A DNA stretch of 64,000 nucleotides from Caballeronia sp. Lep1P3 (GTDB lineage: Bacteria > Pseudomonadota > Gammaproteobacteria > Burkholderiales > Burkholderiaceae): contig NZ_CP084266.1 in assembly GCF_022879595.1 (NCBI RefSeq), forward strand, positions 930,001 to 994,000, read 5' to 3'. Positions within the stretch are counted from its first letter, which is position 1, and every line of letters begins with the position of its first letter. The notes beneath the pieces were generated by a model. The model was not told the origin of the DNA. It searched no databases and saw only the letters and a program-made list of their open reading frames with translations. Position numbers and translations under genes: made by a program. Below, piece after piece: positions 8,035 through 62,703 of this stretch.

Positions 8035-10239
8035 TCAGAAATCCGTCGTCATCGAAAGAAGAACGGTGCGCGGCGCGCCCTGCGTCAGATATCCGCCGAT
8101 GGTCGAAGCCCAATAAGACTTGTTCGCGACATTCAGCACGCTCGCGCGGAAGGTCGTCGGCTTGCCGAAGACCACCGTCGCATAGCGCGCGCCGAGATCG
8201 AAGCGATCCCAGTGCGGAATCGACAGCGTGTTCGTCACATTCAGATACTGCGATCCAGTGTGAATCCAGCGCGCCGACACCGTGAGGCCGTTCAGCAGCG
8301 GCACGTCGTATTCCGCGTTCAGGTTGAACATGAAGGCCGGCACGCCGATAGGCATGTCGCCGTCCGTCGCAGTACTCCCCGTGTCGAGCTGAGATCCGTG
8401 GATGTACGTCGCGCCCGCGATCAGGCGCACGCCGCGCACCGGCTCGCCGTACACCGACGCCTCCACGCCGCGATGCCGCTCGCGCCCGTTATCGACGAAA
8501 AAGCCCGCCGCGTTCGTGTACGTCAGCGGCTTCTCGATCTGGAACAGCGCAAGCGACGCGCCGTATTTGCCGTTGTCGTATTTCGCGCCGACTTCGTATT
8601 GCTTCGACTTCTCGGGCGGCAGTTGCTCGCCGAAATTGACGGCCGTGTTCGGCGCGGAATCGCCGATGGTCAGCGCCTCGCTGCGGTTCGCAAAGAACGC
8701 CACGTTCTGCCACGGCTTCACGACGAGTCCGAAGAGCGGCGTGGTGATGGAATCGTTATAGGTGCGCGTCGGCTGGCCGGTGTAATCGAACGTGTCGGCG
8801 TGCAATTCCTGATAGCGCGCGCCGACCGTGAACAACACGCGATCGTTCAGGAAGCCTAATGTGTCCGACACGGATGCGCTTCTCAGCAGATTGAGCGCCG
8901 TGGTCTGCGGATCGCCGAGATTGCCGCCGGAGAACGTGGTCGCCGGATACGGGACCTGCGGCGTCGCATAGAGACTCGTCGGGAAGGAGCCGGAAAGCGT
9001 GTACGCCGACTGCGAATCGATGCGCACGATAGACGCCCCCGCCGTCACGAAATGCGAAACCGGACCGGTGTTGAAATGGCCGCGCACGCCTGCCTCGGCC
9101 GAACTTCCGTCTTCCTGATGCGGCACGCCGAGACGCGAGCCGGTGGTGCCCGCGTTGCCGACCGTCGGGGACGAATATTCGCCATGCTCGTTCGTGTGGC
9201 GCACGCCGCCCGTCACGTAGGCGGTCCAGCCCGGCAGAAAGTCGTATTCCGCGCGCAGGATGCCGACCGTATCCTCGATGGAACTGAAGCTCCACGTTTG
9301 CGCGTAGTTGTACGTGGCCGAGGGCGTCGCCGGAATGAAATCGCCGCTCACGTTGACGGTCGGGCGGCCACCGTTCACGCGCTCGCGCTGATACAGGAAG
9401 TCGCCGTAGAGACGCAGCTTGTCGCCGCGCCAGTCGAGCGAAACGGCGGTCGTATTGTCACGGCGATGTTCGCCGTCGATGCTCGTTTCGCCGTCGTGAT
9501 TCGCCTGATTCACGCGAATGCCGAACTGCCCTTCGCTGCCGAAGCGCCGGCCCACGTCCACATGCGCGCCGATCTCGCCCGACGCGGTGCCTTCCAGCGT
9601 CACGCGCGTGAGCGGCTTGTCGTCGGCCCGCTTCAACTGCAGGTTCAGACCGCCGCCGACCGCCGAGCCACCCGGCGACGCGCCGTTCAGAAACGCATTC
9701 GCGCCCTTGAACACATCGACGCGCTCGAGCGCATCGGTCGCGACGAGCTGACGCGGCGTGATGCCGTAGAGACCGTGGAGCGAAACGTCGTCGCCCTGCA
9801 ACTGGAATCCGCGAATGATGTACGTCTCCGCGAAGTTGCCGAAGCCGTAGGCGGTCCGCACGGCCGGATCGTTCGCGAGCACGTCGCCGATCGTGCGCGC
9901 CTGCTGATCCTCCATCAGCTTCGACGTGTAGGTGGTCATGCTGAACGGCACGTCGATGTTGCGCTGCTGGCCGAGCACGCCGAAGTCCGCGCCGCGCGCC
10001 ACCTGGCCGCCCGCGAACGTCGGCGCAAGCTCGCCCGGCAACGGCTCCTTCGACGCCTGCACCTTGACGGCCGGAAGCGTGCTGTCCGTGTTCGGGCTGG
10101 CGCTGGCCGCGTCGGGGCCGGCGGACTGAGCGTGCGCGGCGATGGAGAAGGCGGCGGCAATTGCCGCGACGATAGCGGCGCGAGGCGCGAGCGCCTTCGC
10201 AGGCGCGGCCTGCAAGGGATGCGAACGATGGGCGGGCAT
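8035..10239 (-). CDS. TonB-dependent siderophore receptor
   Basis: 734 aa from the ATG at 10239, which places a classical signal peptide at the N-terminus (PRAAIVAAIAAAFSIAAHAQ); an in-frame TTG at 10299 would add 20 unlikely residues. Plug domain at about 60-190: VPFSMTTYTSKLMEDQQART, the TonB plug pattern ANDPAVRTAYGFGNFAETYI followed by IRGFQ, and ERVDVFKGANAFLNG with GGGLNLQLKRA. A ~22-strand barrel follows, ending in VLLSMTTDF with the C-terminal Phe typical of outer-membrane barrels. It resembles FhuA/FpvA-class ferric-siderophore receptors (TIGR01783 type). The ligand cannot be deduced because no siderophore synthesis gene is nearby. A Fur-like box lies upstream. Confidence 0.93.
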   Translation of the reverse strand: MPAHRSHPLQAAPAKALAPRAAIVAAIAAAFSIAAHAQSAGPDAASASPNTDSTLPAVKVQASKEPLPGELAPTFAGGQVARGADFGVLGQQRNIDVPFSMTTYTSKLMEDQQARTIGDVLANDPAVRTAYGFGNFAETYIIRGFQLQGDDVSLHGLYGITPRQLVATDALERVDVFKGANAFLNGASPGGSAVGGGLNLQLKRADDKPLTRVTLEGTASGEIGAHVDVGRRFGSEGQFGIRVNQANHDGETSIDGEHRRDNTTAVSLDWRGDKLRLYGDFLYQRERVNGGRPTVNVSGDFIPATPSATYNYAQTWSFSSIEDTVGILRAEYDFLPGWTAYVTGGVRHTNEHGEYSSPTVGNAGTTGSRLGVPHQEDGSSAEAGVRGHFNTGPVSHFVTAGASIVRIDSQSAYTLSGSFPTSLYATPQVPYPATTFSGGNLGDPQTTALNLLRSASVSDTLGFLNDRVLFTVGARYQELHADTFDYTGQPTRTYNDSITTPLFGLVVKPWQNVAFFANRSEALTIGDSAPNTAVNFGEQLPPEKSKQYEVGAKYDNGKYGASLALFQIEKPLTYTNAAGFFVDNGRERHRGVEASVYGEPVRGVRLIAGATYIHGSQLDTGSTATDGDMPIGVPAFMFNLNAEYDVPLLNGLTVSARWIHTGSQYLNVTNTLSIPHWDRFDLGARYATVVFGKPTTFRASVLNVANKSYWASTIGGYLTQGAPRTVLLSMTTDF

Positions 10240-50320: not shown

Positions 50321-52356
50321 AGAAATTTGTCGATGTCGAACGCCTCGAGATGCTCGATGAGACAGGCAAAGCCGGTCTCGACGAGGAGCTGCTCGATCGA
50401 CCTCGAGTTGTTCGATTCGCGAAACCAACGAAAAAACGAACGATTGATGAAATCACCGTAGTTGCGGTCTATCGTCAGGCCTAGGATCGCGTAGCGCGAA
50501 ATACCGACATATTCGCTTGCCGTCGCGCCATAGTACTGCCGATAGGCTTTCGAGATAACGTCGCAGTCGCGGCCAAGGAAAAGAATCTTGTCAATCGCCT
50601 TCTCGCGGACGGTTCTTTCGATGAACTCACAGTATCCCAGGGTAAGAATGCCGCCAACCCGGAAACCGTGGCTGTAATGAAGACCTTTGTCCCAAACGCC
50701 GGTCCCCATAAAATTGTTGATAACGGCCCGGTAGAAGCTACCAGCCAGGTTATCCATATCATTCTCTCGAATGAAGCAACGCTGATCCGCGCTGTAGATC
50801 GCCGAGATGCCAGCTTCAACAGATTTCTCAACATCAGCCGTGTAGACATCGCCAACATGGACGATCGAATGCTGCTGACCGTATTCGTCCAGTAGCACCT
50901 TTTGAAGCGTGCCGTCCCCTTTACGCTTTTTGTGCTCGTTTGAAAGGTATATCTTAGCGAAGCCGTCATATCCGCACTTAGCGAGCATCTCATCAAGCAC
51001 GCCATGCGGCAGATACATGTCACTCATGAAGACGAGCGTTTTCCCCATTGCCTTGAGACGATCGAAAACTGCCTTGATGTAGGCGTTGGGCCGACATAGT
51101 TCGATCTCCAAGTCCGCCTCAGCTTGCTCCCATTTCCTATCCACGCCGTAACGCCACTCAAGCACTTCGTAGATTTCGCCCAGCGTCACCTCTCGTGTGC
51201 CAAGCATTCGGTCGTTCACCGACCGAGCGTACGCCTCGGCCTGCTTCCGGATTGTCATGAACTCGCTGATACCCGAGCGGGCGGCGAGAATTCGGAAAAC
51301 ATCAGCGGGCTTCTCGACCGTGCGGTGAATCGCCGTATCGAAGACGTCGAACGATATCAGTTCGTAGCGAGCAAGCTCCGAGAACAAGTCATCAATAGAT
51401 AGTCGCCCCGGGTATTCCGGATTGACGAAATATGGCAGTTCTTGACTTACCCGATGGTCTGCATTGGGCCGGACATCAGCAGGTACTACTTGGACAGGTT
51501 GCAGGTCAATTTGAGTATCGACCGCCTCTTTGTGATGCTCATTCCTTCCAGAAAACGGAAGACGCTGCTCAACTTCATTCTGGCGGAAATATCTCGCGTC
51601 GTGGCGCAACTGATCTGCCTGACGTGCTTCAGATTCGCTGAAAGATGTATTCGGTGGCAGGATGTCCAACATCGCTTCCGCTTCGACGTAGTTTTCTGCA
51701 TCGTGTAGCCGAAACGCGAGCCACTTCAGGCGATACGGTTTAGGATCAAGAGCATATGCACGATGCGCTGCATCCGCAGCATATGCATACGCACCGTCGT
51801 TCATCAATTGACGAGCCAGAACCGTATACGCACTGGCCTGCACAGCCGGTAAAGCGGAAGCTTCGGCCAGCAGCTTCTCGACTGCGACGAACCCACCGTG
51901 CCGATACGCGGCGACGACCTTCTTAAAGTCTTTTCCGCCGAGCGACTTGGGAGGGACTTGCCGGCTCGATCCCCACCAAATCTTCCCCAACTTAGCCGGC
52001 ATCGAAAGCAGTCCGCCAGGCGAGCCTACACCTTGGACCAAGATGTCGCCCAACTTGACATTGAGTGCATTCTGAGCCTCAAGTCGATGTATTTTTCTCT
52101 GTGTCTCGACTAAGGCTCGCAAGCGCCGGTTTTCAGCTAGAACCTCTGTCCGTTCGTCACCTACCGTCCACTCATCTTGTACCGAGGTGCCTTGCAACTC
52201 CTCAGATTTGATGTTTTCACGCTCTTGATGACGCCGATAGTGACGCTCCAACTCTTGCTGCACGTGATGAACTTGCCGAAGCAAGAGATCGTTTTCTTGC
52301 GTCAGGTCCTTGAGCCTAGATTCAAGGTTTGTTTGAATGTTCTCGTTGGCAGTCAT
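50321..52356 (-). pseudogene. 5' part of the giant HAD/GT gene (coiled coil, TPR-like region, HAD domain)
   Basis: From the ATG at 52356 (AAGAAG upstream). Residues 1-110 are a coiled coil (LESRLKDLTQENDLLLRQVH, TEVLAENRRLRALVETQRKI). About 160-260 is TPR-like (YTVLARQLMNDGAYAYAADAAHRAYALDP). From about 345 there is a HAD-type hydrolase: YELISFDVFDTAIHRTVEKP (D-x-D nucleophile region), KTLVFMSDMYLPHGVLDEML and IVHVGDVYTADVEKSVEAG. Such COG5610 proteins are found in capsule loci and are often fused to glycosyltransferases. The frame is broken by ISL3 copy 2 at 50320. Upstream, the frame is also open into the IS5-family transposase gene, giving an artificial 1211-aa ORF. Confidence 0.85.
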
Positions 52357-52370
52357 CTTGATCTTCTTTA

Positions 52371-54002
52371 GTCTCACCTGCAAAATTCGATCTCGCTCGC
52401 GCGTGCTCCCGAGTGGTCGATCGGGGCGCAGTCCCACCTTTCCATCTCGGACGGTCGCGCGGGGCGCGAACAAGGCTTCGGGCGAGTCTTTGAACCAGCA
52501 GCGCAGCCACGCAAGAACAAAAAATATGGGCGCAAGCCCCAGGCGGACGATGGCGCGCAACAGCCAGCGCAAGTTGTAGCCCGCCGCGCACAACACTGCG
52601 TGTAACGCGTCGCCGATTTGCCCTTTTAGCCAGCAACGCCGCATGCCGTGCTCCTGTTTTACGTGCCCGATGATCGGCTCGATCGCTTGGCGGCGCTTTA
52701 ACCACTTTCGCTGCGTACTGCTTAGCGCCTTGTGTTTACCTCGATGAATCAGCTGCACCGGCGCAACATCGGCATCCACACCGCGAAATCCGAGGTCGGC
52801 CAGCACGATCTTCGGCGTCGGCGTGCCCGGCAAATCCTGCAGCAAGATGTTCGTTTGTTCAAGTTGCGCGGCCAGCGTGTGCCCGTCGTAAGGGTTGCCT
52901 GCAAACGAGCGCGCACCGACGATCAGACCCTGCTTCTCCGTGATCGCGAGACTGACTTTGACACCGAATTCGTAGGGCTGGCGGGCCTTGCCTTTGGATA
53001 TGCATTCCACTTCTGGCGCGTGAAGCGCGTAGAGTTTGTGCTTGTCCTTCGCACGCTGACGGCAGATACGCCAGGCGCGCTCCAGCCAGATTCGCAAGGA
53101 TGCCTGTTGCTCAGCGGATGCACCCGATAATTTGCGTTCGATGTCACGCAGCAATCGTCCGAGTATCGTGCGCTGACGCTTGAGCACCCGGCGCAGACGC
53201 TTGAACTGTTTGGCATGCGCATAGCCGCCTGCCCGGCGACGCAACTGTTTCCCCTCGCGCTGGTAGGTCTGCTTGAGCGTCAGTCCGGCGCGTTGGGCGA
53301 GCCTTGCGAGTTTTCCTCGTGCAACCTCCAGCAAGCGGCTGTCAGTCGGGTAGGCAATTGCTTTCTCCTGGACCGTCGTATCGACAATCACGCGCTCGAA
53401 CTCGGCCGGCCTTACGGCTTTCATTTGCACGGCCGCCGCAATTGTTGTCGCGAGCATCTCCTCGACGCCGGCTTCGCCCAGCGCCTGCCGAAAGCGCACG
53501 AGGTTGGTCGGATCGCATGGCAGGCGCGGCTGGAAATAGTCCTCGCCGCAGAAGTACTGGAAGTACACGTCTTGTGCCCAGCGCTCGCAAACCGACTCAT
53601 CACTTTCGTTGTATGCGTGCTTCAGGTAGAGCAGTCCGACCATCAGCCGGGTCGACAGGCGCGGACGTCCGGCAGCGCTATGGCCCGCGCCCGCCAGCTT
53701 GGGCGCCGTGCCGAACAGATCAACCTCTGCGCTCAGCCGGCCTTCGCGAGCACGCCGCTCGAAGATCGGTGTCAACGTCGCTTCTATCGACGTCCAGGGC
53801 ATTCGGTTAGCCAGTACGGCCAGCGGGTGCCGCAAATCGATCATTGCATCCAGGCGGCTGCGGAAGAAATCCGGTGTGCTCATCGGCGCTTCTCACTCCC
53901 AGAACATAGGCCAATTCCATATTGGAACTGGGAGTTCCGCAACCCTCTGTTTGCACCTATTACCACGCAGCGCCTGGCTTCACGGCATTCTGCAAGACCG
54001 AC
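52371..54002 (-). mobile_element. IS5-family insertion sequence (IS1478-like), ~1.6 kb
   Basis: Ends placed by similarity of the two termini: left TAGTCTCACCTGCAAAAT (from 52369) and, reading inward from the right, TAGTCGGTCTTGCAGAAT (from 54004), 14 of the first 21 bases equal. TA occurs at both edges and may be a 2-bp target duplication. It sits between the truncated wcbD-like gene and the start of the giant HAD/GT gene. Because most of the wcbD-like gene is missing, a deletion next to the IS must have occurred. Confidence 0.78.
52372..53883 (-). CDS. IS5-family transposase (IS1478-like)
   Basis: About 504 codons within the IS. N-terminal DUF772 region (FFRSRLDAMIDLRHPLAVLA, RPRLSTRLMVGLLYLKHAYN, YFQYFCGEDYFQPRLPCDPT, LVRFRQALGEAGVEEML) and DDE domain (ERVIVDTTVQEKAIAYPTDS, PYEFGVKVSLAITEKQGLIV, KIVLADLGFRGVD, RQAIEPIIGHVKQEHGMRR). 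It lacks its own stop inside the IS: the frame continues through the IS edge into the downstream capsule gene. It may still be functional, as the catalytic region is intact. Confidence 0.88.
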
Positions 54003-54313
54003 TACTGAGTCAGCCATAGCTGATCGCTGCTATTCGGATTGCTGGCTCCGCCGAGTCCAGCAATCGTCGGCGGAAGACTAATGCGCGGACCACTCACCTG
54101 ATCCGTTCGTTGGACGACTACAATGGCGTTGGAAACGTACCGTTCGGACGCAAAAAAGAGCCAATAAGGAACCGACAGAATCGTGAAGGCGATGACAAGT
54201 CGCACGAGCAACTTAAAAATCCTGACTGAAAAGAGCGCGTCCTTGCATCGACCGGAGAGCGTGCGCAATCCGGAAATCACGCCCGACTTCGCGGGCAACA
54301 ATGACTCATTCAT
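54002..54313 (-). pseudogene. Truncated KpsE/WcbD-like capsule export inner-membrane protein
   Basis: Only 103 codons of a protein normally ~370-400 aa. The start (ATG 54313, ATGA overlap with wzt) and the N-terminal layout are right: a cytoplasmic basic region, a membrane segment (LLVRLVIAFTILSVPYWLFF), then ASERYVSNAIVVVQRTDQVSG, as in polysaccharide co-polymerase-like KpsE proteins. It stops after SDQLWLTQ at a TAG at the IS border. The periplasmic coiled coil and second membrane segment are gone. KpsE-type proteins span the periplasm and link the ABC transporter to the outer-membrane channel. Confidence 0.85.
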
Positions 54314-54972
54314 GCGAGAAGATTATCCTTATATGCTTTCAAGCCATCCTGGAGATCGTCGAACCAGTGAGCTTGGCCATTGTTGATCCAGATAGCCGAC
54401 TTACAGAACTTTTCAAGTGTATGCTCGTCGTGAGAAACCATGACCACGCTTGCCTGGTCTGCCTTAGATCTGAAAGCCTCAGCGGCCTTCTTTCTGAATT
54501 TCGCGTCTCCAGCCGCGGTCACTTCGTCAGAGATATACACGTCGAAATTGAAAGCCAAAGACATCGCAAACTGCAGACGCGAGCGCATGCCCGACGAGTA
54601 AGTCTGCACGGGTTGATCGAAAGCAGCTCCCAGTTCAGCGAAGTCTTGGATAAAAGCAAGGCGATCGGCAAGTTCATCCTGATGACCGTGAATCCGACAC
54701 ACAAATTTTGCATTTTGCCGCCCGGTTAATGTACCTTCTAACCCGGCTCCCCCCATAGGCCACGAAACCTGGCACCGCCGGTGGACGCGTCCCTTGGTCG
54801 GAAAGTCGATTCCACCAATAATCCGCAGCAACGTCGATTTACCGGCGCCATTTCTTCCTATCAAGGCGACACTGCGTCGCGACGGAATTGCGATGTTGAC
54901 TCCCCTTAGAATCCATCTTCCCGCCCCGCTTTCACCCCAGTAACGTTTGTGAACGTCTTCGACGACTATCAT
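54310..54972 (-). CDS. wzt: Capsule ABC exporter ATP-binding subunit (Wzt/KpsT type)
   Basis: 220 aa, the short KpsT-type length without a carbohydrate-binding extension. Walker A is LIGRNGAGKSTLLRIIGG, the signature motif YSSGMRSRLQFAMSLAF, Walker B DVYISDEVTAAGD and the switch His VVMVSHD. It powers export of a lipid-linked polysaccharide with the membrane subunit encoded directly upstream (4-nt overlap). The gene is intact and overlaps the truncated wcbD-like gene. Confidence 0.95.
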   Translation of the reverse strand: MIVVEDVHKRYWGESGAGRWILRGVNIAIPSRRSVALIGRNGAGKSTLLRIIGGIDFPTKGRVHRRCQVSWPMGGAGLEGTLTGRQNAKFVCRIHGHQDELADRLAFIQDFAELGAAFDQPVQTYSSGMRSRLQFAMSLAFNFDVYISDEVTAAGDAKFRKKAAEAFRSKADQASVVMVSHDEHTLEKFCKSAIWINNGQAHWFDDLQDGLKAYKDNLLA

Positions 54973-55784
54973 CGCGTCACCAATTTTTTGGAGAATCGCT
55001 TATATAACATGAGCCCCAGAAGCAATAGTCCTAACGCCCATGCATAGATATATCCAAGGCTTACGCCTTTGAGTCCGATGTAATTGGGGTAGTAACCCAA
55101 ACGCATGAGTTCCACCCCGTCGACGACCGGATTTGCAACAGCGATGTACTGGTACGGTTCTGGCACGAACGTCGACAGCGGAACCAACGCCCCTGACATA
55201 TAGTAAAGCGGGAGATAAAGAATTTTGAAAACGTGGTCGATTTCAGGAACGAATCGCATTGCTACCGAAGTGACCAGACCAAGACCTAGCCCTAACAGCC
55301 ATAGCGCGGAAACCGCACCCAATAGCAGCAACGGATCTTGCGGAAGCCAGACCGGATTCTGCGTGTTCTGCGTTATACCATGCCCGGACATGACCACCAG
55401 CGCCATGATCACGATAGAGATCGGTACCATCAGAAACAGTTCGAGCGTTGCGCGTACGATCGCGACATCGAACGGCTTTACTTGTCGATAAGCGAAAAAG
55501 GCCCGGTTCGAATCGACTCCATGCAACACTTGTGTCCACGTGCGGCGCCAAAGCAGGAATCCAATGAAACCGGCCACGATGAACATATTGATCCCCATTC
55601 CACCGACTTGGTGAATGTGGAATGTCACGAATCCGAATGCATGCAATGCGATATACATTATCGGTTCGATCAATAACCACAACCACGCAGCGCGCGCTTC
55701 GAACAGACGATCAAGCGCTTCGCGCAAGAAAATTGCGCGCCAGACCGAGCACGTGATCTCAAATGGCGTCCGAATCTTGGTCAT
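54969..55784 (-). CDS. wzm: Capsule ABC exporter membrane subunit (Wzm/KpsM type)
   Basis: 271 aa, ABC-2 type. Six hydrophobic segments can be seen, among them WLLIEPIMYIALHAFGFVTF, INMFIVAGFIGFLLWRRTW, TLELFLMVPISIVIMALVVM, LLLGAVSALWLLGLGLGLVT and YIYAWALGLLLLGLMLYKRF, with the conserved end PVVDGVELMR...Y. It forms the inner-membrane channel with the Wzt protein. Intact. It starts six bases after the wza 3' fragment's stop, so it would have been expressed as part of a wza-wzm-wzt-wcbD operon. With wza disrupted, its promoter is unclear. Confidence 0.94.
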   Translation of the reverse strand: MTKIRTPFEITCSVWRAIFLREALDRLFEARAAWLWLLIEPIMYIALHAFGFVTFHIHQVGGMGINMFIVAGFIGFLLWRRTWTQVLHGVDSNRAFFAYRQVKPFDVAIVRATLELFLMVPISIVIMALVVMSGHGITQNTQNPVWLPQDPLLLLGAVSALWLLGLGLGLVTSVAMRFVPEIDHVFKILYLPLYYMSGALVPLSTFVPEPYQYIAVANPVVDGVELMRLGYYPNYIGLKGVSLGYIYAWALGLLLLGLMLYKRFSKKLVTR

Positions 55785-55790
55785 ACGCCG

Positions 55791-56152
55791 TCACTGAAAA
55801 TCATGAGTAAAGGTCACCGTCGGATCGGCCACCATTACGACATAAGTGAGGAACTTCCGGAACTCCGCCCCTGGCGAATTCGCGACGTAAATGACGTCGT
55901 GATTCTGGATCGGGAAATTCTGCGTGACGAAAAACGCCGCTGGATCGCGCAAATTGATTTCATACACCACTGGAACCTTCCCATTGCTAGCCTTGACCGA
56001 CGGATCAAGACTGCTCACCAGCGCTGCGTCTTCAAAGCGGAATACGAAAATTCCGCGTGCGTCCGCGCGACCGTCATTCAGACCGCCCGACCGAGCCAGC
56101 GCCTGCGCCAGCGATATCCCCTGTGCTTCAAACGGTTCTGTCTCGTCGTTCT
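55791..56152 (-). pseudogene. 3' fragment of the wza/wcbC-like export gene
   Basis: About 120 codons without a start: NDETEPFEAQGISLAQALAR, SGGLNDGRADARGIFVFRFE, then YEINLRDPAAFFVTQNFPIQ and NHDVIYVANSPGAEFRKFL, the standard C-terminal domain of Wza/KpsD-type outer-membrane export lipoproteins. The 5' part lies 5.7 kb away at 61855-62703 and ends at the matching point (LGATGKNDEIPF). The recombinase element at about 56153-61865 separates the two. Confidence 0.9.
56141..56152. repeat. att-like direct repeat, left end of the recombinase element
   Basis: TCTCGTCGTTCT, repeated exactly at 61866-61877. On the minus strand it reads AGAACGACGAGA and encodes the ND-E of the wza junction on both sides. 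Similarity continues imperfectly (CCGTTT-GAAG) beyond it. Next to it, TGTAAAGATTG (56152-56162) faces an inverted counterpart at 61827-61837. Confidence 0.65.
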
Positions 56153-56383
56153 GTAAAGATTGCTAGCGGCGGACGACAGCACTAAGTGGAAGCCGGTTGA
56201 GGGTCGAGTAATCGTCAACTTTGTCGGGGCTTACGCTGCTTTTATCATCGCCGCTCATATTCCCCGGGTCTGTAGTTAAGCTCAATTGTCCAGCGTAAAA
56301 TTTCTAGATCCATAGGAATACTTATGTCTCTGAGCGATTTTTGCACTGGCTTTTCGCTTCGATGCCACGACAGGTACGGGGCC

Positions 56384-56803
56384 CTACCGTCTCTCTTGCC
56401 CGTCAATAGGCTTGTCGAACTCTTCGATGCTCAGACCGCGCCGCGAGCAGTGGTATGCAATGCGCTGCCATCGCTCGAGCCATACTTGCTCCAGGACCTC
56501 AAATTGACTGAGACGCTCACGCAGGCTTTGAATCGTCTGGTCAAGCTGGTGGAGCTCACCGTAGGTCGATCGCGATCCGGAAGAAGGTCTGCGGGTGGCC
56601 AAAGCGCGTTTGGCCGACTGGTAGGCGTTCGCGATGGCCCGATGGCGGCTTAACGCCTGCCGGGTGAAGCCCGAGAACGCCTCGATGCGCTCCCACGTCA
56701 GCTTTTTACCGAACTCGCCGTCTTGCCAGCGTTGGATTTTGGCAATGATGCTGGCTGCCTTCAGTTCATTGATTTTTGAGTTGGCACGGATCGACTTACC
56801 CAT
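56384..56803 (-). CDS. Small GinD/TnpC-like protein of the recombinase element
   Basis: 139 aa, overlapping the third recombinase gene by 8 bases. It is helical and basic (INELKAASIIAKIQRWQDGE, TWERIEAFSGFTRQALSRHR with a helix-turn-helix look, HQLDQTIQSLRERLSQFEVL coiled coil). Small proteins of this type (DUF6262 / Tn554 TnpC-like) follow the recombinases in GInt and Tn554-like elements and influence recombination direction or frequency. The assignment rests mainly on position and size. Confidence 0.7.
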   Translation of the reverse strand: MGKSIRANSKINELKAASIIAKIQRWQDGEFGKKLTWERIEAFSGFTRQALSRHRAIANAYQSAKRALATRRPSSGSRSTYGELHQLDQTIQSLRERLSQFEVLEQVWLERWQRIAYHCSRRGLSIEEFDKPIDGQERR

Positions 56804-58793
56804 TGCTCCCTCCCTCGATGTAGCGCACCAGATCCGCTTCAGTGAATCCGAGCGTCGTCAATTGGCCCATCAACTGCTCGTACCTTGACTGCAGATGGGT
56901 GAACCAGTCCGGCGCCACTAGCCCCTCCTTTGCGCGCTTCCCGGCCGTCTCGAGACTGATCCTGACGACTGCTGCCTGCCTTTTGAGTTCGTCAGCACGC
57001 TCGACGTCCGCCTCCCGCCAGACGTAGTCATCGCAGTCGACCGTGCACCGCAGATGATGCGGACACGGCGACATCTGGAAGTCGTGCAGGCACATGCCTG
57101 TGCCGACGTCGTGTACGGCGTGTACTCGTGCTAAGACAAACATTTGGGCGCGATCCGCGGGAAGCGCTCTTGCGGTGTCGACTACCGCTCCTTTCATGTG
57201 GCCGCCGAAGATCTCTTTCCGCACTTGCGCCGCTTGCTCGACAGGCGTCAAGTGGTGATAGGCCTTCGTATCCGCCGTATGCTTGCGACCGAACCATTTG
57301 GTTTGAACAAGCTCGGGCGTGCCGCCTTCGTCCAGCAGATGATTCAGGAAGTGACGGAAGCCATGGGAGCGGATATCGATACACGTGCCGTCACTATTCA
57401 CCATCTGATGACGCTCGAAGATCGACGCACATCCGGACCGGCCGCTCAGGAAATCGCTGACGTTCTGATAGGTAATTGGTCGCGCCGCGTATGTGAGGGT
57501 TGTCTTTCTCCCGCGGTGCATCTGATTGGTGTACACCACACAAAGCGCTTCATGCAACGCGAGCCCAGAGCCCGCCGCGCCCCATATCGCAGGCTTCGTC
57601 CAGTGATCCCGGGTCAGCCCCTTCAGCAAATCGGCTCGGTGAACCCGTATTAGTCCCCCTACCCGCCGATACGGAATGTGTCGGGTCTGCAGAAACTGCG
57701 CGACGTTTCTGCTCCGCAGACCGAGCACCGAAGGCAACACGGCGCTATCGAACTCGCTGGCGCAAGAACCATTGGCTAGCAACTCACCGGTCTCGTGATA
57801 GCGTCGCGCCACACAGCGTGCCGCTTGTGTGGCTGAGTGGAGTTCTTCTAGGACCTCTTCGACGAGTTTCTCCGTCTCCGTCAGCAAAGGCTTGTGCGTC
57901 CAATCGACGGTGACATCATCTGCCCGTCCTTTTAGACGCGCGTACCGCAGCGTTTTACTGCCGTCCTTAGCGACCGAAACCGGCCTTTCTGGAAGCGTCA
58001 GCGCTTCTCCAACGCGCAAGCCCGTACACGTCATGAGCGTCGCGATCAGCACCAAGATGCGATCGGCACTGGTAGGATCCGTCGGCGGGGCACCCCGCGG
58101 AACACATCGGTAGAGCGCACCGATGGCTTGGATGGCCTGTTCATCCGGAAGGCGGCTGCGAACAGCGATGCTCTCACCGTCGATTGGCTTGCGGCCGTCG
58201 GAGAGGAAGCGCGGGCGTATTTTTCGGCGGTAACGCCAGTCAAGCCGCTGCCGGCACAAGCCGTTGCGGTCGAGCATGTCGGCAAACTCTTCGATGTATC
58301 CGACTACCTTGTATGCCGATGACTCGCGCTCGCGTCCAAAGAGTTCCGCCGCGGCGACATCAAGGTTGTCGGCGCTCAGTTCGCCGATTTCGTATCCTTT
58401 ATCGGCCAAAGCCTCATGAACGTATCGTGTCGCTCGCACGAACACCATATGGTTCATTGCGGATTGACCGCGCTGACGATGTCGCACGCAGACCAGAGAC
58501 TTCACCACATCGCCAAACGGACCTTCGAACGCCCGTCCCGCTTCGCCCGGTCGAAAGCTATGCCGCGTGAACAGAAGCCTTTGTACAGGCCTGTCAGCGT
58601 TATAGCCACGTGTGCGATGACGGTACGCGTCAGAAACGTCCCAAATCGCGCACTCCCATGCAACGCCCGAGAAGGGCATGTTTTTCTGCGCCTCCGCGAT
58701 CAGCGCCGCCCGGTTGACCAGCCAGTTCTCGGAAGGCGCCACAATCGCAGAACGCGGTGCTGCCATAGACTTACGTCTTCTGGCGGTTTCCAT
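56796..58793 (-). CDS. Tyrosine recombinase 3 of the element (GinC-like)
   Basis: 665 aa from the ATG at 58793, preceded by GGAGG nine bases upstream; an in-frame start at 58829 lacks a ribosome site. Catalytic residues: Arg in LMTCTGLRVGEALTLPER, His-x-x-Arg in DIRSHGFRHFLNHLL, the Trp/His position in VQTKWFGRKHTADTKAYHHL with the final Tyr. After the catalytic domain, a Cys/His cluster (CLHDFQMSPCPHHLRCTVDC) may bind zinc. It is larger than ordinary integrases (~400 aa), as expected for this element class. It overlaps genes on both sides. Confidence 0.88.
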   Translation of the reverse strand: METARRRKSMAAPRSAIVAPSENWLVNRAALIAEAQKNMPFSGVAWECAIWDVSDAYRHRTRGYNADRPVQRLLFTRHSFRPGEAGRAFEGPFGDVVKSLVCVRHRQRGQSAMNHMVFVRATRYVHEALADKGYEIGELSADNLDVAAAELFGRERESSAYKVVGYIEEFADMLDRNGLCRQRLDWRYRRKIRPRFLSDGRKPIDGESIAVRSRLPDEQAIQAIGALYRCVPRGAPPTDPTSADRILVLIATLMTCTGLRVGEALTLPERPVSVAKDGSKTLRYARLKGRADDVTVDWTHKPLLTETEKLVEEVLEELHSATQAARCVARRYHETGELLANGSCASEFDSAVLPSVLGLRSRNVAQFLQTRHIPYRRVGGLIRVHRADLLKGLTRDHWTKPAIWGAAGSGLALHEALCVVYTNQMHRGRKTTLTYAARPITYQNVSDFLSGRSGCASIFERHQMVNSDGTCIDIRSHGFRHFLNHLLDEGGTPELVQTKWFGRKHTADTKAYHHLTPVEQAAQVRKEIFGGHMKGAVVDTARALPADRAQMFVLARVHAVHDVGTGMCLHDFQMSPCPHHLRCTVDCDDYVWREADVERADELKRQAAVVRISLETAGKRAKEGLVAPDWFTHLQSRYEQLMGQLTTLGFTEADLVRYIEGGSNG

Positions 58794-60414
58794 GGGCATG
58801 AGCCTCCACCGTCCGCACCACCTGAGCAACCGCGTAAATCACTTCATCAAGCTGCACGGCGACGCGTGTCCCATACCGTTGAGCACGCACGTCGCGGCCC
58901 TCAATCAGGGCATCCAGTACGGCTCCGTGATTCGCTTGTCGATAAGGCTGGAACTTTGCACAGACGTAACAAGAGAACGGAGGATCCAGCGCGCACAGAC
59001 CGCTTTGACCGCAGGCGCCTATATCCACTGGCGCAATGGCCGCCATATCGCCAACAAAGACGACGCGCTTGTCCGGACGGCCACCGTTAACGGCATGCTC
59101 ACCGGATCCGACGATCTTGCCCCTGAACAGGTCCATCAGCGGACTGAGCTTCAAAGCTGCCGCACGATCGAGGATACGGGTCATGCGTCTGCCCTTGAGC
59201 GCGTAGTAGACGTGAACGTGCCGTGTATCGGAATGGTCGAGCATCGTCGCCAACACGGCTCTCGAAACTCCCAACTCGACCATGGCCGTCGCGAACGTGT
59301 AACGGAGTCGACGTCCGCTGATCCAGATCGGACGCAAGGTCCGCGGCGAGATCAGGCCCATGCGTCGTGCGAAGTCGCTTACGTGTTGGCAGAACCTTGT
59401 GGATGTCAGGTGATATGCGAACTCACCCATATCCGTGCCTTGATGCCACTTATCTATTTGGTCTCGCATGAAGAGCGGTCTGGGACGATGACCGCAATCG
59501 AGCGTTTTGTTGACCTCGATCAATTGCTGCAGCACTTTGAGCAATTCGTCGCTCACCGGCTCTTGCACGAACGCCTGCCGTGCGCCGCAGCCCCGCTTCT
59601 TTATTCTAGGAATCGCAAGCACCCACTGAGGCGGTACGTCGAACCCTTGGAGCAAATTGCTCAAATCGGTCTCACGCAGCAAGCAGAAGTTGGCCGGGTT
59701 GCGTCCATACGCGAGGCAGAGGGCTACCGCTGCGCGCTGCATGACGTCGACGCGCTTCATTGATGTGTCCTCGTTCAGCGCGCGACGTAAAAGCGTCACC
59801 TCAACGTCCCACAGTGGTCCTTGATCTTCGTCTTCTAGGTCCACTGCCAGCCGGGAAGGCGGCACCGGTACCTGAATCTCGTCGAGTTCCCGTGCAAACT
59901 GTTCATCGAAGCCTAGGCATGCAAGCATTTCGGCACACCAGACATACCACCTGCGAACGACATAGAAATGCGTGAGTTGTTTGTGTTCACGGAGGACCTG
60001 CACTGCATGCTTGATAAGCGCGCTTAACGCGGGTCGCAAAACTCTTGGTTCGTCAATATCTGCCAGACGCTGCCATAAACCGGCCTGCGTCGGAGAGACG
60101 ATCTCCTGGCTTCTGCCGCTTGCTCCGCTCAGCGCGCTTGCCGTCGACTCCGCAGCAATCGAAACGGTGATGCCCGACTTCTGAGTCAGAAGCATGATCA
60201 CCCAACGCCGCAGTGCATAGTTCACGATGATGTTGCCGACTGCAAGGCGCGACCAGTCCATTGAAACGTGTTTCGACGCGACGTTGCATCGCCACACGTC
60301 ACCTTCAAGGCTCACTCGCCTGCCATCACGATCGACTACGCCTTCGGGCAATAAGGGCAGCCCATAGCGCTGCAAGTGCACCCGCATCGCTCGATTCACC
60401 TCTTGGTTAGTCAC
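58771..60414 (-). CDS. Tyrosine recombinase 2 of the element (GinB-like)
   Basis: 547 aa, ATGA overlap with recombinase 1. Integrase features: Arg in ALCLAYGRNPANFCLLRETD, the H-x-x-R box replaced by SGRRLRYTFATAMVELGV (His position reads Arg), LATMLDHSDTRHVHVYYAL with the distal His and Tyr. A C-terminal Cys-rich piece (CGQSGLCALDPPFSCYVCAK) may bind metal. The altered box suggests reduced catalysis or a structural role, unless the class tolerates it. Confidence 0.86.
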   Translation of the reverse strand: MTNQEVNRAMRVHLQRYGLPLLPEGVVDRDGRRVSLEGDVWRCNVASKHVSMDWSRLAVGNIIVNYALRRWVIMLLTQKSGITVSIAAESTASALSGASGRSQEIVSPTQAGLWQRLADIDEPRVLRPALSALIKHAVQVLREHKQLTHFYVVRRWYVWCAEMLACLGFDEQFARELDEIQVPVPPSRLAVDLEDEDQGPLWDVEVTLLRRALNEDTSMKRVDVMQRAAVALCLAYGRNPANFCLLRETDLSNLLQGFDVPPQWVLAIPRIKKRGCGARQAFVQEPVSDELLKVLQQLIEVNKTLDCGHRPRPLFMRDQIDKWHQGTDMGEFAYHLTSTRFCQHVSDFARRMGLISPRTLRPIWISGRRLRYTFATAMVELGVSRAVLATMLDHSDTRHVHVYYALKGRRMTRILDRAAALKLSPLMDLFRGKIVGSGEHAVNGGRPDKRVVFVGDMAAIAPVDIGACGQSGLCALDPPFSCYVCAKFQPYRQANHGAVLDALIEGRDVRAQRYGTRVAVQLDEVIYAVAQVVRTVEAHAHGNRQKT

Positions 60415-61622
60415 GAGGGGCTTCCTTGCGCCTGTCTAAAGAGCGCGCTTTGATATGCCAGGCTGATTTCGGACGACTCCTTGCGGATCGCGGCCTCAAT
60501 ATACGGTCTGACGGATTCAGCTGAACGCCATCCAAAGAAGTACATCATGTTCCGGGTCACACGCTCATCGTCGAGACCGTTTGCCAGGCCGGTCAAACGG
60601 AATTCGGTCGCACAGGTACTGCGCAGTCGATGCGGATGCAAGTGCTCTAACTCGGGATGCAAAGCGCCAACCTGGCTTAGGAGCTCGTTGACGCGGACAA
60701 GACTCATCGGGCGGCCACTTCTGCTCAAGAACAGAAACGGCGTGCGGGCTGCCCCGGGTACGCGTCGACGCGATTGGCAGATGTAGTCATTGAGGTATCG
60801 CGCTAGAGAACAGTCACACGGTACATGACGTGGCTCGGTCTTTACCTGCGGTTCATTGAGCCGCGGATCGTCTGGATCGTCGGGTGCTCGCGCGATCCGA
60901 AGTTGCGGATCGTTCCGCGACAGTAAGCAATCCGAAACACGAAGCTTGAGCAACTCGCCACGCCGCATGCCTAGCGTTCCTAGCAGCAGGACGATCAGAT
61001 AGTTGCGCTGCCGATACGTCGCTTTCCATGGATTTTCATCAGCATCCGGATGGCAGACTTGCAGAAGTCGGTGCAGTTGTTGATGCGATAACGGTGCTGC
61101 ATGCTTGGCAGAAGGCCTGCCCGCCTGAGCAAGTGAAGCGAAGCATCGCTGTGTCAGCGCCACTCTCGCCCGGATGTCCGTGATTTCGGGGGCGCCTACT
61201 GGCAACGTTGACATCACGCCTTCTAGGTGCCATATGATGCACTTTGCGACGACGTTCAGCCTAAACCCTAACGTACTCGGCGAGACGACAAGCTTGGTTA
61301 CCTTCCCGGACGTTGGGGCGCTGCGTCGCAACCAGGGGTATAAACGGCTTACGATTTCGTCCTGGCTGAGACCTTGTCCTGAAACGAGTCGTGCCCGTAA
61401 AGGGAAGTTTTCGCTCACCGACCATGCCCAGAGCTGGCCGAGAACGTATAACGTCTTGACGAGACTGTTCGCCGAGAGCCGCAACCGCAAGCGCTTGATC
61501 AAGTAGACGTTGATCCAGGGAACGGGCTGTCGATCCGCATCCAACAAGATGGGTAGACGTTCGCCTCCTGACTGTCTAACCAGCACAACGTGAAACTGAG
61601 CGCCCATGGACGCCTCCCTCAC
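60411..61622 (-). CDS. Tyrosine recombinase 1 of the element (GinA-like)
   Basis: 403 aa. Catalytic residues: Arg in LLLGTLGMRRGELLKLRVSD, H-x-L-R in HPHRLRSTCATEFRLTG, Trp in place of the second His (YFFGWRSAESVRPYIEA) and Tyr in the same stretch. An N-terminal SAM-like core-binding region precedes it (NSLVKTLYVLGQLWAWSVSE). It is the first gene of the four-gene operon. Its upstream region (61623-61854) carries a terminator for incoming wza transcription. Confidence 0.9.
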   Translation of the reverse strand: MREASMGAQFHVVLVRQSGGERLPILLDADRQPVPWINVYLIKRLRLRLSANSLVKTLYVLGQLWAWSVSENFPLRARLVSGQGLSQDEIVSRLYPWLRRSAPTSGKVTKLVVSPSTLGFRLNVVAKCIIWHLEGVMSTLPVGAPEITDIRARVALTQRCFASLAQAGRPSAKHAAPLSHQQLHRLLQVCHPDADENPWKATYRQRNYLIVLLLGTLGMRRGELLKLRVSDCLLSRNDPQLRIARAPDDPDDPRLNEPQVKTEPRHVPCDCSLARYLNDYICQSRRRVPGAARTPFLFLSRSGRPMSLVRVNELLSQVGALHPELEHLHPHRLRSTCATEFRLTGLANGLDDERVTRNMMYFFGWRSAESVRPYIEAAIRKESSEISLAYQSALFRQAQGSPS

Positions 61623-61802
61623 GGATGCGATCTCAACGCAGGCTAAGTTTACGACTTTTTATGGCGATGCCGGTGGGTTTCGTCTCGATGCGCTTCGCGA
61701 GTGGACTTCACTGCCATGTACCGCATTAAAAAAGTCCGGGGCCGCGGTGCCCCTTCGTTCAAGGTTGCAGTCTATTGACCTTCGCAACCTAAATAGAAAA
61801 AG

Positions 61803-61825
61803 AAAAACCCCGCACTAAGGCGGGG
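61803..61825 (-). terminator. Strong minus-strand terminator at the right end of the recombinase element
   Basis: On the minus strand CCCCGC-CTTAGT-GCGGGG (61825-61808) is followed by TTTTT and more T's. It lies about 30 bases after the stop of the wza 5' fragment, so transcription entering from the capsule promoter should end here before reaching the recombinases and the genes beyond. Confidence 0.85.
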
Positions 61826-61854
61826 TCGATCTTTACACTCTCGGTTACGGAACT

Positions 61855-62703
61855 TCAAAACGGAATCTCGTCGTTCTTGCCCGTCGCGCCGAGCACCGAA
61901 AAAGTCAGCGGCTGGAAAAGCGCCGTCACTACGTCGCCCGGCTCAAGCCGCACATTTTGCTTAGGATCTCGAATCACCGAGTCCAACGCCATGGTCGCCG
62001 TAGTATCCCTGCGTGACAGCTGGACGGCCATATGGCTAACCGATTGCTTCAGTCCGCCAGCAAAGGCTAGCGCATCCAGCAGACGCTCCCCTTTTGGCGT
62101 GAGCGGCATCATGGAACTGGTGTTCACTTCGCCGACGATCGTGACATTCGACGCATTGTTCTTCGTCACTCTGACGAGCACTTGAGGCTGGTTCGCCTTG
62201 CCTTTGAGATGGCTGACGATGGTGCCCTCGATCTGCTCCGCCGTGCGTCCTGCAACATTCACGCGGCCGGCAAACGGAATCGTGACAGTGCCATCGGCGG
62301 CTACCATTTGGGTCGGCAGCGTGACACTGGTCGAACCGCCCGAGCCAAGTGAGGGCAACGATACCGGCGCCGCCGAACCGAACAGCATCGCGGGCGGCGT
62401 TTCCCAGATCGTCACTTCAATCACATCACCGGGACCGATCTCGTAGGTATTCGTCGTCTTACTCGCGAACGTGTTCGAAAAGCGCCCCAGCTGTTTCGCT
62501 TTCGCGAGTCCGCGCGCCAGCACATCGTTGACGTCCACCAACTGAATGCCTTCGATGCGTCCAGAGTCGTGCTGCTCGAGTACCTGCTCACGACTCGCTC
62601 CTGACGCCGGGATCCAATCCGGAAAGGTTCCACACCCCGACAGACACAAAGTTGCTAGAGCCCAGACCAACGAGACTTTCTTCTTTATCGAGCTTGACAT
62701 CAT
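61855..62703 (-). pseudogene. 5' part of the wza/wcbC-like polysaccharide export lipoprotein gene
   Basis: 282 codons from adjacent ATGs at 62703/62700 with AGAAGAAC upstream. Lipoprotein signal: KKVSLVWALATLCLSGCG, with the Cys of the L-S-G-C lipobox. Then TYEIGPGDVIEVTIWETPPA (poly_export domain), VTIPFAGRVNVAGRTAEQIE, VRVTKNNASNVTIVGEVNTS and MPLTPKGERLLDALAFAGGL (SLBB domain). It ends LGATGKNDEIPF at a stop provided by the inserted element; the native protein would continue with the 55791-56152 fragment (total about 400 aa). It forms the outer-membrane exit channel for capsule in intact loci. Confidence 0.9.
61866..61877. repeat. att-like direct repeat, right end of the recombinase element
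   Basis: TCTCGTCGTTCT, identical to 56141-56152. It lies inside the last codons of the wza 5' fragment. Confidence 0.65.

What the first reader, a model, noticed from the sequence alone, without database searches (positions are those of the whole stretch)
56153..61865. Cargo-free GInt-like element splitting the capsule export gene wza
Three large overlapping tyrosine recombinase genes (403, 547, 665 aa) and a 139-aa helical gene make up the whole 5.7-kb insertion. The gene set matches the ginABCD recombination module known from GInt islands (established knowledge), but here no cargo is carried. The element sits inside a coding gene, with both halves of wza recognisable at its edges. It offers a minimal model of this recombinase class.
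Basis: partly seen in the sequence, partly recalled or inferred. Interest (0 to 1): 0.75.

Follow-up and report, generated by a model that had tools for sequence, protein, structure and literature searches.

The report
Cargo-free GInt in capsule gene wza
A small mobile DNA element made of four recombination genes and no passenger genes, of a kind whose relatives mostly insert at the end of the ssb gene, has here landed inside a capsule export gene at a spot that resembles the end of ssb.

Summary
Four genes (ginA-ginB-ginC-ginD) fill a 5,728-bp insertion (56130-61857, one core copy included) that splits wza, and all four proteins belong to the published GInt class. New here: (1) Borders. Both lie at a 6-nt core, CCGTTT; the neighbouring 12-nt repeat is probably not the crossover. 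(2) Target. Of 75 related operons, 53 start directly behind ssb, and the core is the P-F codons of the SSB tail. The five relatives of its own clade whose site could be read sit behind ssb. The wza junction differs from the chromosomal ssb end at 3 of 18 positions; only 17 places in the 6.18-Mb genome are that close. The chromosomal ssb is unoccupied. So this looks like an ssb-directed GInt in a secondary site; truncated Wza now ends NDEIPF-stop, like SSB. (3) It is not the only cargo-poor GInt: Paraburkholderia mimosarum has a 6.0-kb one (ginC broken) at a plasmid ssb site where Burkholderia aenigmatica holds an 18.1-kb one. Recombination activity is not shown, and the secondary-site reading rests on one insertion. 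Verdict: a real, cargo-less variant of a known element class, apparently caught off target.

The parts
56130..56135 (-). distal core copy (CCGTTT on the minus strand); wza continues beyond it
   Evidence: conserved distal ends of five clade relatives run up to this point; coordinates
56136..56383 (-). short 3' end of the element (248 nt, GC 0.496), with inward arm CTTTACA at 56152-56158
56384..56803 (-). ginD, small protein (139 aa) with the family motif LTW..(x)..TRQAL
   Evidence: 72 bits to an HMM of 66 GinD ORFs of the survey; alignment A4
56796..58793 (-). ginC, tyrosine-recombinase-like (665 aa from ATG)
58771..60414 (-). ginB, tyrosine recombinase (547 aa)
60411..61622 (-). ginA, tyrosine recombinase (403 aa; possible ATG start at 61607)
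61806..61827 (-). terminator-like hairpin with T run just behind the grafted stop codon; same place in the clade relatives
   Evidence: 6 such sites found, 6.0 expected in shuffles, so the scan alone says little; conservation in L029-L032 and L034
61831..61837 (-). arm TGTAAAG of the proximal end, inverted relative to CTTTACA at 56152-56158
61855..61857 (-). stop codon TGA supplied by the element; truncated Wza ends ..NDEIPF
61858..61863 (-). proximal core copy (CCGTTT); 61858-61875 matches the chromosomal ssb end at 15 of 18 positions
61855..62703 (-). wza N-terminal part (282 aa with the new ending)
55791..56129 (-). wza C-terminal part, intact to its stop

Best explanation
[quoted passage not shown] Its recombination operon ginABCD plus two short ends of about 0.25 kb make up the whole element. 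Its relatives insert at the 3' end of ssb, with a 6-nt exchange inside the two codons (P-F) before the ssb stop; the element brings a stop and a terminator, so that SSB keeps its tail. Here the same machinery used a look-alike inside wza of a Caballeronia, leaving a core copy CCGTTT at each border and splitting the gene. Shown: gene set, borders by comparison, likeness of the site to ssb, ssb position of relatives, no cargo. Inferred: that the exchange happens in the core, that the four proteins are active, that wza is inactivated, that the site was chosen for its likeness to ssb.
For: Homology and order: GinC relatives in 18 of 299 family genomes and 80 fetched loci of 161 found; 73 of those 80 show ginA, ginB and ginC, in that order, the other 7 lacking ginA or ginA and ginB. 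GinD fits the GinD HMM. Site: 53 of 75 operons start behind an ssb-type tail, with five more likely ones among the other 22. Clade: L029, L030, L031, L034 and L033/L061 lie behind ssb, two of them with extra DNA between ssb and ginA. Ends: the distal end ..ACAGAA|CCGTTC or close variants is shared by L029, L031, L032, L033, L034 and the window. Look-alike: the 18-nt ssb end occurs within 3 mismatches at 17 places in 6.18 Mb, chromosomal ssb and the wza junction among them; reversed-pattern control 1. Frame: with the exchange in CCGTTT both wza flanks line up with four intact homologues; with it in the 12-nt repeat the C flank would hold one codon more.
Against: One insertion only; no second case of this clade in wza. 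Two genomic places are closer to the ssb end than wza (2 mismatches) and are not used. GInts with other sites are known (ABC transporter gene, PMC5385486), so a changed specificity rather than a miss is possible. The direct-repeat scan does not single out the window: five other loci reach its score of 12 and controls reach 13. The distal pattern tried first gave 3 hits against 1.5 expected. No activity data.
Confidence: 0.82

Rival explanations
1. The element belongs to a GInt lineage whose specificity has shifted to wza; this is its proper site, not a miss.
For: GInts with non-ssb sites exist (PMC5385486), and 15 of 75 loci here show no ssb-tail motif in the upstream stretch searched, some of them cut by contig ends.
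Against: Its nearest relatives whose site could be read lie at ssb; among 299 family genomes no other close GinC relative was seen in wza, though flanks were inspected only for part of the 18 positives.
Confidence: 0.1
2. It is a remnant: a former GInt with cargo that lost its cargo by deletion and is now stuck.
For: Relatives carry up to 18.5 kb behind ginD; several of them have broken gin genes.
Against: All four ORFs are open, catalytic positions of GinA and GinC are kept, and both ends are intact; both wza halves show no decay. Cargo loss before insertion cannot be excluded.
Confidence: 0.25
3. It is a RIT element or another trio transposon rather than a GInt.
For: Three adjacent overlapping tyrosine recombinases and no cargo, as in RITs.
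Against: Sizes 403/547/665 aa with a fourth gene; RITs have three of 315-410 aa and 34-bp inverted ends (PMC10214605, passages). The own genome's RIT-like trio scores at most 24 bits against the ginA HMM and is not hit by the ginC HMM. None of the 25 inverted-repeat pairs shown (of 80) joins the two ends.
Confidence: 0.02

Closest known systems
[quoted passage not shown] 2017, PMC5385486)
   Same: ginABCD operon at one end, short AT-richer other end (0.2-0.4 kb in the paper, 0.25 kb here), imperfect direct repeats, 6-nt exchange, ssb as frequent site
   Different: no cargo (published range 2.5 to at least 70 kb), position inside a non-ssb coding gene
Tn6571/Tn6488 type transposons (ginABCD; PMC10121019 and PMC8865565, passages)
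   Same: another name used for ginABCD elements
   Different: not compared by sequence here
Strand-biased circularizing integrative elements, SE (PMC10214605, abstract, one section and passages)
   Same: four-gene module with two large recombinases, a recombinase-like protein and a small protein; 6-bp footprint
   Different: gene order intA-tfp-intB-srap; the authors find SE and GInt proteins in separate clusters; SE sequences not compared here
RIT elements (PMC3414803, passages)
   Same: three overlapping tyrosine recombinases, no cargo, about 3.5 kb
   Different: no fourth gene, smaller recombinases, inverted ends
Tn554
   Same: site-specific, tnpA-tnpB-tnpC; GinD reported as TnpC counterpart (PMC5385486, PMC10214605)
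   Different: two recombinases; not compared by sequence here

Membership tests
GInt | ginABCD operon: three tyrosine-recombinase-like genes and one small gene, in that order | tested here: met
   No GInt named in the 2017 paper was at hand as a direct reference; Pseudomonas cerasi (L154), close to the P. syringae GInts at ssb, served indirectly
GInt | cargo region between ginD and the 3' end (2.5 to at least 70 kb in the paper) | tested here: not met
   248 nt between ginD stop and distal core. The authors define GInts by the operon, so this is taken as a variant
GInt | short, AT-rich 3' end of 0.2-0.4 kb | tested here: met
   248 nt, GC 0.496 against 0.578 for the element
GInt | flanking imperfect direct repeats of 10-17 nt and 6-nt exchange | tested here: met
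   core CCGTTT at both borders and AGAACGACGAGA beside both; the exchange itself is inferred
GInt | excision as a circle, all four genes needed | not testable with these tools
   needs PCR or read mapping
RIT element | three recombinases of 315-410 aa only | tested here: not met
   403/547/665 aa plus ginD
RIT element | 34-bp terminal inverted repeats | tested here: inconclusive
   none among the 25 of 80 inverted pairs shown
SE | intA-tfp-intB-srap sequences | not tested
   no SE reference fetched

The most novel reading that the evidence does not exclude
GInts of this clade are built around the end of SSB: the 6-nt exchange falls in the P-F codons of the SSB tip, and the element carries the following stop and terminator. 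A cargo-free copy can therefore behave like a small transposon that grafts an SSB-like ending, stop and terminator onto any gene holding a look-alike, and the cargo-free form may be the basic form from which cargo islands are built at ssb.
Probability: 0.35. Interest if true: 0.65.

Novelty: new variant of a known kind. Interest (0 to 1): 0.5.

Why it matters
It gives a natural counterpart, with exact borders, to the synthetic minimal GInt; a concrete rule for the preferred site (the coding end of ssb); and an end motif, although the 2017 paper reported no common feature in the 3' end. It also shows how a site-specific island can break a surface-polysaccharide gene. The rule can be tested directly with short sites in a laboratory strain.

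Tried and rejected
Megablast of the element against plasmids: no match. Direct-repeat scan for cargo-free copies: not informative; the window's score of 12 is reached by five other loci and exceeded in controls. First distal pattern: 3 hits, 1.5 expected, though the control stretches can hold true ends. A second pattern (core followed by a stop) gave 15 hits against 0.5 in simple shuffles; some of the 15 look weak (L100, L149), and the window and P. mimosarum do not match it because host sequence without a stop follows the core. The 12-nt repeat as crossover: rejected because relatives' conserved distal end continues past it to the core and because of the extra codon. Promoter/terminator scan: counts no better than shuffles. 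RIT and Xer membership: rejected. Literature on cargo-free or misplaced GInts: searches listed none in the held open library; most listed papers were seen as listing only, and supplementary tables could not be opened. A GinD HMM leaving out clade members was run, but its score was cut from my print and is not used.

Full report
What is there. The window lies on contig C2 of a 6.18-Mb, six-contig genome. Its genus in the tool's grouping contains G238, whose contig C18 has the same length (156,138) as a named Caballeronia temeraria contig found with the same gene, so the host is taken to be a Caballeronia (inference). On the minus strand four genes follow each other with short overlaps: ginA 60411-61622, ginB 58771-60414, ginC 56796-58793 and ginD 56384-56803. 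They lie between the N-part of wza (61855-62703) and its C-part (55791-56129), both open. The C-part is followed by a capsule-type ABC permease (54969-55784) and ATPase (54310-54972).

Class. Pfam gives Phage_integrase for A and B and a sub-threshold match for C; D has no family above cut-off. GinC relatives occur in 18 of 299 genomes of the family and in 82 plasmid records. A scan of genome contigs with a GinC alignment found 161 relatives, of which 80 loci were kept. HMMs of A, B and C show all three genes, in that order, in 73 of the 80; the other 7 lack A, or A and B, where a contig end or distance may be the reason. An HMM of 66 GinD ORFs scores 72 bits on the window's GinD (the 66 include one member of its clade). 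In a GinA tree the 77 gin sequences form one group (support 0.928 with midpoint root), apart from the own genome's RIT-like trio and two Xer-like proteins, which do not form one group among themselves. The window's clade (Paraburkholderia sp. D15, G273, P. mimosarum, B. aenigmatica, Cupriavidus agavae) has support 1.0 in GinA; for GinB and GinC the same neighbours appear, not all of them represented. Only one gin operon was found in the own genome.

Site. The nearest relatives on plasmids sit next to ssb. In 75 loci with A, B, C and at least 150 nt upstream (window and four duplicates left out; the rest are not all independent, for example L117/L120 and L138/L141), 53 have an ORF ending in an SSB-type tail directly before ginA, at a median of 138 nt. 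Of the other 22, five show the same tail-like ending under a laxer search, one (L120) follows the distal end of another GInt, and one (L134) has the core in a different context; 15 gave no hit, some being cut by contig ends. In the 53, the six bases before the stop are CC[GAT]TT[CT] or a close form, and a [TG]GTAAA arm follows within 60 nt in 21 of 53 against 1.4 in shuffles. In the window's clade the sequence behind the ssb stop is shared: TTCC-GTAA..TGTAAAGATC and a terminator-like hairpin. The window has the same sequence behind CCGTTT-TGA at wza.

Borders. Distal ends were found by likeness to the window's: window, L034, L029, L031, L032 and L033 end in A(A/T)AGAA-type arms followed by CCGTTC, CCGTTT or, in L032, CCCTTC. 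This puts the window's distal border at 56130-56135 and the proximal one at 61858-61863. The 12-nt repeat AGAACGACGAGA (56141-56152 and 61866-61877) lies beside the core; placing the exchange there would leave one codon too many in the C flank compared with the four intact homologues. The published model has 6-nt staggered cuts (PMC5385486, legend of figure 4). I give the core as most likely, not as proven.

Look-alike. The 18 bases at the proximal junction (61858-61875, contiguous in the window) match the chromosomal ssb end at 15 of 18. In the own genome 17 places, both strands, lie within 3 mismatches of that ssb end, the ssb itself and the wza junction among them; the reversed pattern has 1. 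With a degenerate 21-nt pattern only ssb (0 mismatches) and the wza junction (1) are within one mismatch, 13 more have three, none two; the control has 8. There the last bases at wza come from the element. The chromosomal ssb is followed by ordinary DNA, with no gin genes; the plasmid ssb on C5 has an altered ending.

Cargo. Behind ginD the element runs 0.25 kb in the window, about 0.54 kb in P. mimosarum, 1.5 kb in G276, 5.4 kb in C. agavae, 12.6 kb in B. aenigmatica and 18.5 kb in G273. The P. mimosarum end has no recognised gene, but one 111-codon open frame. That its border is right is backed by backbone genes: a primase-like gene and further plasmid genes follow it, with counterparts behind the B. 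aenigmatica element at 27 to 76% identity. So the same kind of place holds a 6.0-kb and an 18.1-kb element (lengths). The P. mimosarum ginC has an in-frame TAG. An Azonexus metagenome contig (L105) has an end motif 0.24 kb behind ginD, but its ginA runs into the contig start. Other distances from the second pattern range from 0.75 to 8.3 kb.

Proteins. In alignments of 77 GinA, R220, K261, H331 and R334 are invariant, and W365 and Y374 are kept in 76. In 82 GinC, R272, R492 and Y524 are invariant, K300 is kept in 80 and H489 in 81. In 81 GinB the position of the first catalytic arginine is R in 74 and N in 7, the window among these. [quoted passage not shown] The alignments here do not bear that out, but they are sequence alignments only.

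How it most likely works. GinABC with GinD exchange strands in the 6-nt core between the circular element and a host site. At ssb the host keeps its tail because the core is the last two codons and the element adds stop and terminator. In wza the same act ends the protein after NDEIPF and separates the last 112 codons. Loss of Wza function is inferred, not shown.

Judgement. This is a real, well-bounded, cargo-less variant of a known class in an unusual place. The strongest new points are the tie between core and SSB tail and the look-alike in wza. The weakest is that the off-target reading rests on one insertion and on no activity data.

Noticed in passing
window 52300-54313: A transposase-bearing stretch (DUF772 and DDE_Tnp_1) adjoins a 103-aa N-terminal piece of a BexC/CtrB/KpsE-type export gene (54002-54313): apparently a second lesion in the same capsule export operon.
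   Followed up: partly
own genome C1:769160-771589 (L060): Three adjacent tyrosine recombinases (355, 336, 452 codons), RIT-like, only weakly alike to gin (14-24 bits to ginA HMM).
   Followed up: partly
own genome C5:168384 (L062): The plasmid ssb lacks the usual end: its frame reads on past DDIPF for a dozen residues.
   Followed up: no
L030 15517-16854: A group II intron reverse transcriptase gene lies between ssb and ginA in Paraburkholderia sp. D15, where the ssb/element border would be.
   Followed up: no
L033 about 9015-9080; L120 upstream of ginA: Distal ends followed at once by a second proximal-type end: tandem GInts or traces of them.
   Followed up: no
GinB and GinC alignments: GinC keeps R, K, H, R and Y almost without exception, while the window clade's GinB has N at the usual first arginine; this differs from published statements on GinC.
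   Followed up: partly
L061 887-2731: In G276 about 1.2 kb lie between the ssb stop and ginA, and ginB is interrupted by a few kb.
   Followed up: no
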